From the NCBI RefSeq assembly GCF_900445235.1, contig NZ_UFSM01000001.1:310001-374000 (forward strand): 64,000 bases of DNA, written 5' to 3'. This document shows, in pieces, positions 38,103-44,690 of the stretch. The notes beneath the pieces were generated by a model that saw only the letters and a program-made list of their open reading frames with translations, searched no databases and was not told where the DNA came from. Within the stretch, counting starts at the first letter, position 1. Every line of letters begins with the position of its first letter. Source of the stretch: Aminobacter aminovorans (GTDB lineage: Bacteria > Pseudomonadota > Alphaproteobacteria > Rhizobiales > Rhizobiaceae). A program made the position numbers and the translations under genes.

Positions 38103-38807
38103 CTACGAGCGTGCCGGAATGTTCAGCCCCGCCTGCACTGCCGGGCGGGCCAGGCCGCGCTCCAGCCATGCCCCGACATTCTCGAAGCTCTTGAAGCCGA
38201 CCAGGTCGCCGGCGTCGTAGAAGCCGATCAGGTTGCGCACCCAGCCAAGCATCGAGATGTCGGCGATGGTGTAGTCGTCGTCCATGATCCACTTGCGGCC
38301 TTCGAGCCGCTTGTCGAGCACGCCGAGTAGGCGGCGCGACTCGTCGCGATAGCGCTCGAGCGGTCGCTTGTCTGATATCTCGCGGCCGGCGAATTTGTGG
38401 AAGAAGCCGAGCTGGCCGAACATCGGGCCGACAGACGCCATCTGGAAGAATACCCACTGAATGGTCTCGTAGTGGCGGGCGCGGTCGGCAGGGATCAGGC
38501 GGCCAGTCTTCTCGGCTAGATAGAGCAGGATGGCGCCCGACTCGAACAACGCCAGCGGCTTGCCGCCGGGACCGTTGGGGTCAATGATCGCCGGGATCTT
38601 GCCATTCGGGTTCAGCGCCAGGAATTCCGGCGTCCAGCTTTCATTCTTGCCGATATTGATGGCATGCGCCTCGTAGGGCAGGTCGAGCTCTTCGAGCGCG
38701 ATCGACACCTTGACGCCATTCGGCGTCGGGAACGAGTAAAGCTGGATGCGGTCCGGGTGCTGCGCCGGCCAGCGGGCAGCAATCGGAAAGGGAGTGAGAT
38801 CGCTCAT
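38103..38807 (-). CDS. Glutathione S-transferase, nu class (YghU/YfcG-like)
   Basis: A 234-residue two-domain protein. The N-terminal thioredoxin fold has TPNGVKVSIALEEL (T28, N30), matching the Thr/Asn active site of YfcG/YghU proteins, which reduce disulfides with glutathione. NPNGKIPAIID and LFESGAILLYLAE bind glutathione. The start at 38807 follows GAGGAA; the open frame extends upstream without family features. It is a single gene downstream of the NodE-like gene on the same strand, after 143 bases. Confidence 0.9.
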   Translation of the reverse strand: MSDLTPFPIAARWPAQHPDRIQLYSFPTPNGVKVSIALEELDLPYEAHAINIGKNESWTPEFLALNPNGKIPAIIDPNGPGGKPLALFESGAILLYLAEKTGRLIPADRARHYETIQWVFFQMASVGPMFGQLGFFHKFAGREISDKRPLERYRDESRRLLGVLDKRLEGRKWIMDDDYTIADISMLGWVRNLIGFYDAGDLVGFKSFENVGAWLERGLARPAVQAGLNIPARS

Positions 38808-38950
38808 CGACGGTTCCTCGTGGGGTGGCCGGCGTGAAGCGCACGAGCCAGAATGGTGGGGCACACAAGAGTTAGTCATGCGGACGCGCCGCATCAATAT
38901 GCAGCGCACCTGTTTTGTCTCGATGACAGATTAGGCCGAAGAAGGCGCGG

Positions 38951-40162
38951 TCAGACCGCCTTCACCGCAACCACGGCATTGGTGCCGCCAAAGGCAAAGC
39001 CGTTGCTGATCGCAACGCGCACCGGGCGCTGCCTGGAGACATTAGGCGTGATGTCGAGATCGCAATCGGCATCGGCCTCGCGATAATTGGCGGTCGGCGG
39101 CACGATCCCTTCGCGCACGGCGTTGACGCAGGCGATCATCTCGAGCGCGCCTGAGGCGCCGAGGCAGTGGGCATGCATCGACTTTGTCGACGACACCGAC
39201 AGCTTGTCGGCATGGGCGCCAAAGACACGGCGGATGGCCGCCGTTTCGATCTGGTCGTTTGCCTTGGTGCCGGTGCCATGGGCGTTGACGTAGTCGACCT
39301 CTTCCGGTGCCAGCCCAGAGTCGAGCAGGCAGGCACGCATCGCCGCGGTCGGGCCTTCGACAGTCGGCGCCACGATGTCGGAGGCGTCGCCGGACATGCC
39401 GGTTCCGGCAAGTTCGGCCAGGATCGTCGCGCCACGGGCAACCGCGTGGTCATGGGTTTCGAGCACGACCATGCCCGCGCCTTCGCCGAGAACCAGCCCT
39501 TGCCTGTCCGCGGAAAACGGACGGCAGGTGTCGGGCGCAACGACGCGCAACGCTTCCCAGCCCTTGATCACGCCCCACACCAAGGGCGCATCGGTGCCAC
39601 CGGCAACGATCGCGTCGGCGCGGCCGAGCAAAAGCTGGTCCATTGCGGTGGCGAATGCATGGTTGGACGACGAGCAGGCCGAGGTGACGCCGAACACCGG
39701 CCCGCGCAGGCCAAGGTTCATGCTGACCTGGCCGGCAGCCGCACCCGGCATGACCTTCGGCACGGTGAAGATGCCGGCGCGGTTCCTGCCTTCGAGCAGG
39801 ATGGCGCGGTAGTTTTCCTCGATCGCTTCCCAGCCGCAGACGCCGACGCCGACGATGGTGCCGACACGATGGGTATTGCTGTCGTCGACCACCAGGCCGG
39901 ACTGACGCAATGCTTCCTTGGCCGCGATCACGGCGAGAAGGCTGAACCGGTCCATCGAAACGAGCTGCTTGCGGTCGATGCCGTGCTCGGGCAGATGCTT
40001 GATCTCGGCGCCGATGCGGATCTTGAGCTCATGCAACTCGCCATTGGTCAGCGGCCCGATGGCCGAACGGCCGGCACGCATGGCATCCCAGATGGCTGGA
40101 GCATCGGTGCCGAGACCGCACAGCCCGCCGATACCGGTGATGACGATGCGGGGTCGCTTCAT
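38951..40162 (-). CDS. Beta-ketoacyl-ACP synthase closely resembling NodE
   Basis: Condensing enzyme of 403 residues with the thiolase fold. The catalytic triad is visible: Cys163 in TSACSSS, His295 in NAHGTGT and His332 in HAHCLGASG. By memory of the family, segments such as GGLCGLGTD near the N terminus, [27 protein letters not shown] and [13 protein letters not shown] match NodE of rhizobia, which with NodF makes polyunsaturated acyl chains for Nod factors. It begins one base after the acyl carrier protein gene ends, as in nodFE. No nodABC, nod box or other nod gene is seen, so a non-symbiotic lipid role is likely. FabF is the alternative. Confidence 0.85.
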
Positions 40163-40163
40163 C

Positions 40164-40418
40164 TCAGGCCGATTTTGCAATCAGGGCGCGAACGGCTTCG
40201 ACCATGTCGCCGACATTCTTGAGGCTGCTCCAGGCGTCGACGGTGTTCATCTCGATCTCGATGCCGTACTCTTCCTCGAGGTCGAAGATAATCTCGGTGA
40301 GTTCGAGCGAGTGGATGCCGAGCGCGGTCAGCTCTGTGCCGAGCGTGATCTCTTCGCCACCTTCCTCAGCATGCGCCTTGATCTTGGCGATGATGTCCGT
40401 TGCCAACTGGTCGGCCAT
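40164..40418 (-). CDS. Acyl carrier protein resembling NodF, with HSL in place of DSL
   Basis: An 84-residue acidic four-helix carrier protein. The phosphopantetheine serine is Ser37 in LGIHSLEL. In almost all carrier proteins the residue before it is Asp (DSL); here it is His. The second half, [18 protein letters not shown] followed by [11 protein letters not shown], is very like NodF. Its stop is one base from the start of the NodE-like synthase, so the pair is coupled and presumably works as a unit on a special fatty acid. It is divergent from ureD, with a 196-base space. Confidence 0.85.
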
Positions 40419-40614
40419 AAGTACCCTTCCCCAGAACTCTCACATTTGTCATGCCCGCGCCGCGCAGCACTTGCGCCGGGCCCGAGCCAGACCTTTCAGA
40501 CGATATCGCCCCCGAATTGAGCCAAAAAGGCATCCCTGTATAGAAAGCGAAACGCGAGGAGGCAACAAGCTTGTATATCGACAATTCCGCCTGTGCGGCT
40601 AACCTTGGGGCACC

Positions 40615-41469
40615 ATGACTTCAGGCATATCATCGTCCGTCCAGGCGGACGCAGCGGCAATTTCGACGCAGCGCGTGGCGGCGCGCGGCCGCATCGAGAT
40701 CGATCACCGTGCCGGCCGCAGCCGCCTCGCCCGCCTCTACCAGGATGGCGCTGCCAAGATCAGGCTGCCCGAGACAGGCGCCGATCCGCTCGAAGCCGTG
40801 CTGATCAATATGGCCGGCGGGCTGACCGGCGGCGACAGGCTCGGCTGGGAGGTTTCGGTCGGCGCGAGCGCACGCGCCGTCATCACAACCCAAGCCTGCG
40901 AGAAGGTCTACCGCGCGCTTACCGACCGTGCCGAGGTCGAGGTTCGCCTGTCGGTCGGCGCCGGCGGTTACCTCGGCTGGCTGCCGCAGGAAACGATCAC
41001 TTACGATCGCTCCGCCTTTTCACGCAGGCTCGACGCCGACCTGGCAGTGGGTGCCGAGGCGCTGATCGTCGAAGCGACCGTCTTCGGCCGCAGCGCCATG
41101 GGCGAGCGCGTCGAAAGCGGCACGTTCCGCGACCGGTGGCGCGTCAGGAGCGCGGGCCGGCTCATCCACGCCGAAGATTTCTCCGTCGGACCAGAGATCG
41201 AAGCAACGCTCGGCCGAAAGGCATCGAGCGGCGGGCGCATCGCCATGGCAACGCTGCTGCTCGTCTCCGAACGCAGCGAACATCTGCTGGAGCCGGCGCG
41301 GCAAATTGTCGGCGACGACGGCGGCGCCAGCTTCTGGTCGGTCGGGCCAACTGGCAAGCTTCTTGCGAGGCTTTACGCCGGGGACGGCTACACGCTACGG
41401 AAACGACTCATGCCGCTGGTCGCCCTGCTCAATGGACAGGCAGGCCTGCCCAGATTGTGGTCACTCTAA
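40615..41469 (+). CDS. ureD: Urease accessory protein UreD
   Basis: Chaperone of 284 residues that docks on apo-urease and, with UreF and UreG, passes nickel to the active site. It has the family landmarks [23 protein letters not shown] and [10 protein letters not shown]. It is the first gene of the urease cluster, 16 bases before ureA. The divergent region upstream, shared with the NodF-like gene, must carry the promoter. Confidence 0.95.

Positions 41470-42978: not shown

Positions 42979-44690
<1,712 letters not shown>

What the first reader, a model, noticed from the sequence alone, without database searches (positions are those of the whole stretch)
38951..40418. NodF/NodE-like carrier protein and ketoacyl synthase beside the urease operon, with HSL instead of DSL
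The synthase and carrier pair look much more like the Nod-factor-specific NodE and NodF than like housekeeping FabF and AcpP. The gene order and one-base spacing of nodFE are kept. Yet no nodABC, nodulation regulator or nod box is visible, and the neighbours are GST and urease genes. The carrier has His36 where carriers nearly always have Asp before the phosphopantetheine Ser37. This could be the chromosomal ancestor of nodFE, or a dedicated system making an unusual acyl chain for a surface lipid or signal.
Basis: partly seen in the sequence, partly recalled or inferred. Interest (0 to 1): 0.75.

Follow-up and report, generated by a model that had tools for sequence, protein, structure and literature searches.

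The report
Chromosomal source of nodulation nodFE genes
A two-gene set for building a special fatty acyl chain sits beside the urease genes of a bacterium in which no NodA nodulation gene was found, and sequence trees indicate that sets like it were taken up twice to shape the fatty tail of the signal that rhizobia send to legumes.

Summary
Window 40164-40418 (-) encodes an 84-residue carrier with His36 before Ser37; 38951-40162 (-) encodes a 403-residue ketoacyl synthase one base downstream. The synthase is 67-74% identical to NodE but 41% to the genome's own FabF.

The pair is syntenic (GST next in 80 of 80 named loci, ureD in 74) and under purifying selection. All 80 have HSL and no nod-box-like site within 500 bases upstream. 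No NodA was found in this genome.

Synthase trees place classical NodE (carrier with Asp and a longer loop) inside the HSL group, in its Mesorhizobium-Aminobacter part; NodE outside is rejected (AU p 0.014, 0.0025). A separate lineage of 83-residue HSL/QSL carriers lies on rhizobial plasmids, each with a nod-box-like site (9 of 9); one origin with classical NodE is rejected. So the module was probably recruited twice, and NodF's Asp is a reversion from His.

Likely mechanism (inferred): a dedicated carrier and condensing enzyme borrow housekeeping enzymes to make an acyl chain for an unknown lipid. Chromosomal copies were noted before as 'apparent duplicates' (PMC6331556); the tree reverses that direction.

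The parts
40164..40418 (-). NodF-like acyl carrier protein, 84 aa, LGIHSL with His36 before the phosphopantetheine Ser37
   Evidence: PF00550, E 1.4e-9; best PDB hit NodF 1fh1; HSL conserved in family
38951..40162 (-). NodE-like beta-ketoacyl-ACP synthase, 403 aa, catalytic Cys-His-Lys-His kept
   Evidence: below NCBIfam fabF equivalog cut-off; catalytic residues; trees
38103..38807 (-). Glutathione S-transferase family protein, conserved downstream neighbour (start read at the ATG of MSDLTPF)
   Evidence: (80 of 80 named loci)
40615..41469 (+). ureD, conserved divergent neighbour at the head of the urease genes
   Evidence: (74 of 80 named loci)
40530..40584 (.). Conserved block in the carrier-ureD intergenic region, possibly promoter or regulatory DNA; no sigma-70-like match reached the scan's threshold
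   Evidence: alignment of 17 intergenic regions; no promoter-like site found

Best explanation
This is a non-symbiotic member of the NodF/NodE family: a two-gene module of one dedicated acyl carrier and one dedicated condensing enzyme. Shown: it is widespread in this bacterial family, syntenic, under purifying selection, with intact synthase catalytic residues, and classical symbiotic NodE falls inside its relatives. Inferred: AcpS, the only phosphopantetheinyl transferase detected in the genome, loads Ser37 despite His36. The synthase extends chains on this carrier; FabD, FabG, FabZ and FabI are borrowed from the housekeeping pathway; and because the chain stays on a distinct carrier, a still unidentified transferase delivers it to a particular lipid. 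Nod-factor biosynthesis probably recruited such modules twice. One recruitment came from the Mesorhizobium-Aminobacter part of the family and became classical NodFE, where His reverted to Asp, a loop of 7-10 residues was inserted and the Phe gate residue mostly became Met. The other came from a different part of the family and kept His or Gln, the short loop and Phe.
For: Family and synteny: 80 of the 80 named loci kept have HSL and a synthase 0-11 bases downstream; GST next in 80 of 80 and ureD next in 74 of 80. Survey: 99 of 297 genomes of the family have a match at E 1e-6. By my hand count, 67 have a match without the long NodF-type length and at least 56% identical; I read 42 of these 67 (my choice, one or a few a genus) and all 42 are HSL. 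5 of the 67 have NodA. Trees: the 37-row Aminobacter-Mesorhizobium-NodE clade has support 100/99 and NodE 100/99; NodE outside the HSL/QSL set (plasmid type included) is rejected, AU p 0.0137 and 0.00251. A carrier tree with the motif column removed also puts classical NodF inside the HSL set (59 rows, 99). One origin for classical NodE and the plasmid HSL/QSL type is rejected (lnL difference 91). Nod-box-like sites: 9 of 9 plasmid HSL/QSL loci score 33-37 of 41 at 277-393 bases upstream, with 0 sites of 28 or more in 20 shuffles of a 9.2-kb locus; the 80 named loci reach at most 23 in 500 bases, shuffles 24. Synthase: Cys-His-Lys-His in 124 of 124 non-plasmid HSL members and NG86 dN/dS 0.05-0.18 in nine comparisons. 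Transferase: one PF01648 match, no 4PPT_N match.
Against: No biochemical or lipid evidence. No neighbouring transferase or reductase points to a product. Where within the Mesorhizobium part classical NodE arose is not settled: NodE just outside the Mesorhizobium/Pseudaminobacter rows is not rejected (AU p 0.123). The clade of Aminobacter, Mesorhizobium and NodE had only 85/99 in the 92-row tree, whose bootstrap had not settled, and the fork joining NodE to the nearest non-symbiotic rows 98/91 and 88/94. The tested groups were named after a first quick tree was seen. The carrier tree is poorly resolved and does not show NodF with Mesorhizobium in particular (83 columns). Chromosomal location is stated by the record title for 3 of the 80 named loci; otherwise it is inferred from synteny. 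The 4PPT_N control was weak (over cut-off in 3 of 14 control genomes).
Confidence: 0.68

Rival explanations
1. The chromosomal pair is a later duplicate of symbiotic nodFE that moved from a symbiosis island or plasmid to the chromosome.
For: [quoted passage not shown] huakuii 7653R (passage).
Against: Classical NodE nests inside the family, not the reverse; the loci are syntenic across many genera, and by hand count 62 of 67 such genomes lack NodA.
Confidence: 0.06
2. A plain FabF/AcpP paralogue pair that merely backs up housekeeping fatty acid synthesis.
For: The synthase is still a FabF-type enzyme: it passes the broad PRK07314 subfamily cut-off (414.8 against 387) with the same catalytic residues.
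Against: It fails the fabF equivalog cut-off (427.7 against 493.75), and the carrier fails every acyl-carrier cut-off listed (for example 26.7 against 70.45). The own genome keeps a separate DSL carrier directly upstream of its FabF-type gene.
Confidence: 0.12
3. The carrier is no longer phosphopantetheinylated because Asp was lost; it works as an apo scaffold or partner of the synthase.
For: Asp before Ser is the usual contact of AcpS with carriers (recalled); one transferase was detected in the genome.
Against: The Ser is kept in all 170 carriers aligned; relatives have D, E, Q, N and H before it, and the Q/H plasmid forms have nod-box-like sites. A purely structural role would not predict conserved catalytic residues in the synthase.
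Confidence: 0.1
4. The pair serves urease or glutathione metabolism, since synteny with ureD and GST is deep.
For: ureD next in 74 of 80 and GST next in 80 of 80 named loci.
Against: In other genera the stretch held (mostly 16 kb) shows the pair without urease (for example L126, L129, L133, L142, L145, L146, L148, L149) or without an adjacent GST gene (L143, L145, L148, L149), and outer relatives (L154, L157, L158, L160) sit between leuD-type and leuB-type genes (names from the L154 proteins).
Confidence: 0.05

Closest known systems
Classical NodF/NodE (Nod-factor acyl-chain pair, e.g. Rhizobium johnstonii pRL10, L183)
   Same: Carrier-synthase order, short spacing, 67-74% synthase identity and 47-67% carrier identity depending on row and method, catalytic residues
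   Different: Window pair: HSL not DSL, without the 7-10 extra residues, Phe instead of Met at the gate position (15 of 16 classical NodE have Met), no nod-box-like site, no NodA found, beside urease
83-residue HSL/QSL pairs on rhizobial plasmids (S. fredii GR64, S. americanum, S. chiapasense, S. mexicanum, S. terangae, R. etli IE4771 and Mim1, Rhizobium sp. NXC14 and CC1099)
   Same: Short carrier, H (4 of 9) or Q (5 of 9) before Ser, Phe at the gate position in the eight intact synthases
   Different: On plasmids; the five of Sinorhizobium lie beside nodABC; each has a nod-box-like site; separate branch of the synthase tree
FabF/AcpP of type II fatty acid synthesis
   Same: Fold family and catalytic residues
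   Different: 41% identity to the own FabF-type gene, own AcpP-type carrier has DSL, NCBIfam equivalog cut-offs not met
Other specialised rhizobial carriers AcpXL, RkpF, SMb20651, SMc01553
   Same: Idea of an extra carrier dedicated to one product
   Different: Not compared by sequence, except that the own carrier taken to be AcpXL-like has DSL; lipid A and capsule are the products named for AcpXL and RkpF in PMC9386255 (passage)

Membership tests
NodF/NodE protein family (sequence sense) | Closer to NodF and NodE than to AcpP and FabF | tested here: met
NodF/NodE protein family (sequence sense) | Carrier directly followed by synthase, short gap | tested here: met
   (gap 0-11 bases in 80 of 80)
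Functional nodFE (nodulation genes) | NodD-controlled nod box upstream | tested here: not met
   upstream best 20 of 41, whole window 25; best site in each of 15 symbiotic control loci 30-41. Note: only 4 of 9 classical plasmid loci have a site within 300 bases of the carrier gene
Functional nodFE (nodulation genes) | NodA acyltransferase in the genome | tested here: not met
   no PF02474 match in G000
Functional nodFE (nodulation genes) | Classical carrier features: Asp before Ser and 91-94 residues | tested here: not met
Functional nodFE (nodulation genes) | Makes the polyunsaturated acyl chain of Nod factors | not testable with these tools
   Known for a classical member: IRBG74 nodE deletion loses polyunsaturated chains and chains over C18 (passage, PMC5080398)
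FabF (beta-ketoacyl-ACP synthase II equivalog) | NCBIfam TIGR03150 curated cut-off | tested here: not met
   427.7 against 493.75
AcpP (TIGR00517 equivalog) | NCBIfam curated cut-off | tested here: not met
   26.7 against 70.45
Active elongating ketosynthase | Cys-His-Lys-His (E. coli FabF C163, H303, K335, H340; numbering recalled) | tested here: met

The most novel reading that the evidence does not exclude
A pre-symbiotic, chromosomal carrier-synthase module whose carrier uses His instead of Asp before the phosphopantetheine Ser was recruited at least twice, independently, into NodD-controlled Nod-factor synthesis. In the classical lineage the carrier changed back from His to Asp, gained a loop, and the synthase changed its gate residue. 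The original module still makes an undiscovered, set-aside acyl chain in many non-nodulating bacteria.
Probability: 0.6. Interest if true: 0.75.

Novelty: new variant of a known kind. Interest (0 to 1): 0.62.

Why it matters
nodFE shape the acyl tail by which legumes such as Medicago recognise their partner, and the passages and listings seen in these searches (open-licence papers only) did not state where the two genes came from. A syntenic family that contains classical NodE, plus a second separate plasmid lineage, makes the origin of this host-specificity trait directly testable: the same assays can be run on the ancestral-type pair, the His/Gln plasmid type and the classical Asp type. It also offers a natural series (H, Q, N, E, D before Ser) for asking what the usual Asp of carriers is for, and points to an unknown lipid in soil bacteria that do not nodulate.

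Tried and rejected
Urease or GST function from synteny: rejected as a main reading because other genera keep the pair without urease or without an adjacent GST gene in the stretch held, and outer relatives sit between leuD-type and leuB-type genes. Sfp-type transferase as partner of an HSL carrier: no 4PPT_N match and only one PF01648 match in the genome (the 4PPT_N control was over cut-off in only 3 of 14 genomes). Sigma-70-like promoter upstream of the carrier: none at the scan's threshold, although a block is conserved by alignment. Inverted repeats: none in 38800-40720. Literature for a stated origin of nodFE: (open-licence papers only; one search was useless because 'node-like' is an ordinary phrase) gave only the passages cited. 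Looked into without gain: PMC5702008 (passages) and PMC7178038 (passages). G462, with a partial NodF-like match (L103): my quick script printed nothing for it, left open. No structure prediction was run.

Rows dropped: the 92-row tree used 25 of the 80 named loci; the 72-row tree dropped 27 of those 92 rows (for speed, three of them long branches) and added 7. R. etli Mim1 (L218) was left out of the trees because its synthase frame is broken; L155 has a carrier but no adjacent synthase; L161, L162, L166 and the ESL relatives were left out of the careful trees. The best 80 of 184 genome loci were returned, and one of the six search patterns contained HSL, so the 80 of 80 count leans towards HSL; the genome survey, searched with the window's own carrier, agreed in the 42 of 67 loci that I chose to read.

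Full report
What is there. The minus strand of the window holds an 84-residue carrier (40164-40418) followed after one base by a 403-residue ketoacyl synthase (38951-40162; junction TGA-G-ATG). GC of the pair is 0.648 against 0.645 for the window. Upstream and divergent lies ureD, downstream in the same direction a GST-family gene. The window lies on contig C1 of a 5.89-Mb genome (hits on that contig reach position 4.29 Mb). The nearest named relatives are Aminobacter (carrier 96-98%).

Is it NodF/NodE-like? Yes. The carrier's best solved relative is NodF 1fh1 (E 2.8e-22), far ahead of the next (5.5e-6). The synthase is 68-75% identical to the 60 best plasmid records listed of 1302 but 41% to the own FabF-type gene, 33-34% to two other own synthases and 28% to part of a fourth. 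NCBIfam equivalog cut-offs for fabF and acyl carrier are not met. His36 is real. Of six PF00550 matches in the own genome, the AcpP-type carrier reads LGADSL and the AcpXL-like one LGIDSL (names recalled); HSL was seen only in the window's.

How widespread and how constant? Of 184 genome loci that encode a relative, the best 80 were kept; all 80 have HSL and a synthase 0-11 bases downstream. One search pattern contains HSL, so I asked again with a genome survey: 99 of 297 genomes of the window's family, in 39 of 109 genera, have a match at E 1e-6, and 90 of 397 in the order (places outside the family are 28-46% identical but for one at 59%). Of the 20 order-level loci that I read, 16 have ESL, one ESI, two DSF and one NSL. 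By hand count, 67 genomes have a match of at least 56% identity that is not of the long NodF type; the 42 of them that I read (window included) are all HSL. In all, the 170 aligned carriers read HSL 127, DSL 16, ESL 16, QSL 3, NSL 3, DSF 3, ESI 1, DSI 1; this is not an even sample.

Synteny. In the 80 named loci the GST gene is next in 80 and ureD in 74; the other six show GST but no ureD in the stretch held. The same order is seen in many other genera of the family, not in all. Three of the 80 loci are on records titled chromosome, complete genome (L022, L050, L082); for the others chromosomal location is inferred from synteny. NG86 dN/dS between the window's synthase and nine relatives is 0.05-0.18. 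The catalytic Cys, His, Lys and His are in all 124 non-plasmid HSL synthases aligned.

Link to nodulation. NodA was not found in the window's genome or in four others of its genus; 18 of 297 genomes of the family have a match. Of the 67 genomes above five (G086, G147, G165, G226, G271) have NodA. The best nod-box-like site upstream of the carrier is 20 of 41 in the window and at most 23 (mean 21.1, 500 bases) in the 80 named loci; shuffles give at most 24 (mean 21.3). The best site anywhere in each of 15 symbiotic control loci is 34-41 in 14 and 30 in one. Directly upstream of the carrier gene the classical loci are mixed: 4 of 9 named plasmid loci have a site of 35-40 on the coding strand within 300 bases, L186 and L188 have one at 1.0-1.2 kb, and L184, L220 and L221 none of 28 or more within 3 kb. 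So lack of a site alone would not exclude a nod role; lack of NodA in the genome is the stronger point.

Where do the symbiotic genes fall? Classical NodF has 91-94 residues (88 in one row as trimmed by me) and Asp before Ser, with NodE next to it. In a 92-row synthase tree and a 72-row tree, all 16 classical NodE rows form one clade (100/99) inside the HSL family. It lies within a clade of Aminobacter, Mesorhizobium and a few rows of other genera (37 rows, 100/99; 52 rows, 85/99, where the bootstrap had not settled) and, more finely, with rows from Mesorhizobium sp. 1M-11, IRAMC:0171 and a MAG (98/91; 88/94). Holding all other HSL/QSL members together (plasmid type included) with NodE outside is rejected (p 0.0137; 0.00251). 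Holding only the 22 Mesorhizobium/Pseudaminobacter rows together is not rejected (p 0.123), so 'inside' or 'beside' Mesorhizobium is open. The groups were named after the quick tree was seen, which the AU test does not allow for. A carrier tree without the motif column also nests classical NodF inside the HSL set (59 rows, 99), with little resolution below that.

A second recruitment. Plasmids of S. chiapasense, S. fredii GR64, S. terangae, S. mexicanum and S. americanum carry an 83-residue HSL or QSL carrier and synthase beside nodABC; plasmids of R. etli IE4771 and Mim1 and of Rhizobium sp. NXC14 and CC1099 carry the QSL form with no nod genes annotated in the stretch shown. All nine have a nod-box-like site scoring 33-37 of 41 on the coding strand 277-393 bases upstream; 20 shuffles of a 9.2-kb locus gave no site of 28 or more. 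The eight with an intact synthase form a clade (100/100) in a different part of the family (99/98). One common origin with classical NodE costs 91 log-likelihood units and is rejected (the printed p of 2e-156 should be read as 'very small'). PMC9048898 lists GR64 as having nodEF (passage) without this distinction in the passages I saw.

What changed on recruitment. Since the HSL type surrounds classical NodF in the tree, Asp in NodF is most simply a change back from His. Classical NodF also has 7-10 extra residues before the motif. At the position of FabF Phe400, a gating residue (passages of PMC7138838), all 124 non-plasmid HSL synthases have Phe and 15 of 16 classical NodE have Met (two more with Met); the exception, L132, is the first branch of the clade. 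The plasmid HSL/QSL type keeps Phe in the eight intact synthases.

How it probably works. Classical NodFE give Nod factors their polyunsaturated chains: deleting nodE of IRBG74 removes polyunsaturated chains and chains over C18 (passage, PMC5080398; L192 here has that strain's BN877 tags), and nodF mutation in S. meliloti replaces C16:2 by C18:1 (abstract, PMC3908372). By homology I infer that the window's pair likewise diverts chain elongation onto its own carrier, with borrowed FAS enzymes, for a transferase that is not NodA. One transferase match, taken to be AcpS, was detected (none with 4PPT_N), so AcpS must load an HSL carrier if it works. The product is unknown. Apart from GST, which is not adjacent in several other genera, no third gene is constant beside the pair, which fits a two-gene module that depends on the host's general pathway.

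What is known. Copies of NodE/NodF in Mesorhizobium strains lacking the symbiosis island have been called 'apparent duplicates', with the suggestion that they are in the main chromosome (passage, PMC6331556), and M. [quoted passage not shown] NodF, AcpXL and RkpF are specialised carriers discussed in PMC9386255 (passages). I found no statement of the origin of nodFE, of the HSL signature or of two recruitments in the listings or the passages read; the library holds open-licence papers only, and I read no paper whole.

Noticed in passing
window 43130-43419 (-): Rfam RF02514 (5' ureB sRNA) matches at 123 bits, antisense to the start of ureC; the score may reflect conservation of the urease coding sequence rather than an RNA.
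   Followed up: no
window 40530-40584: A strongly conserved block in the carrier-ureD intergenic region across 17 Aminobacter and Mesorhizobium loci, with AT-rich pieces; no standard promoter match.
   Followed up: partly
L154, L157, L158, L160 (about 4.5-12 kb): Outer relatives of the pair (QSL, DSL, NSL) sit between leuD-type and leuB-type genes instead of beside urease.
   Followed up: partly
L163-L165, L167-L179: More distant ESL carriers with a synthase: 15 of these 16 loci have an acyl-CoA-ligase-type gene and 12 each a thiolase-type and a FadB-type gene in the stretch held: a related system of unknown product.
   Followed up: partly
L126:7323-7811, L145:8385-8888: A family of about 160-residue proteins without Pfam match lies directly upstream of the carrier in several genera.
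   Followed up: partly
L155:7905-8255: A GIHSL carrier without a neighbouring synthase.
   Followed up: no
L218:4001-5212: In R. etli Mim1 the plasmid QSL-type synthase frame is broken, though its nod-box-like site remains.
   Followed up: partly
L217:5360-5950: S. americanum CCGM7 has a second NodA-family gene directly beside the plasmid HSL-type pair.
   Followed up: no
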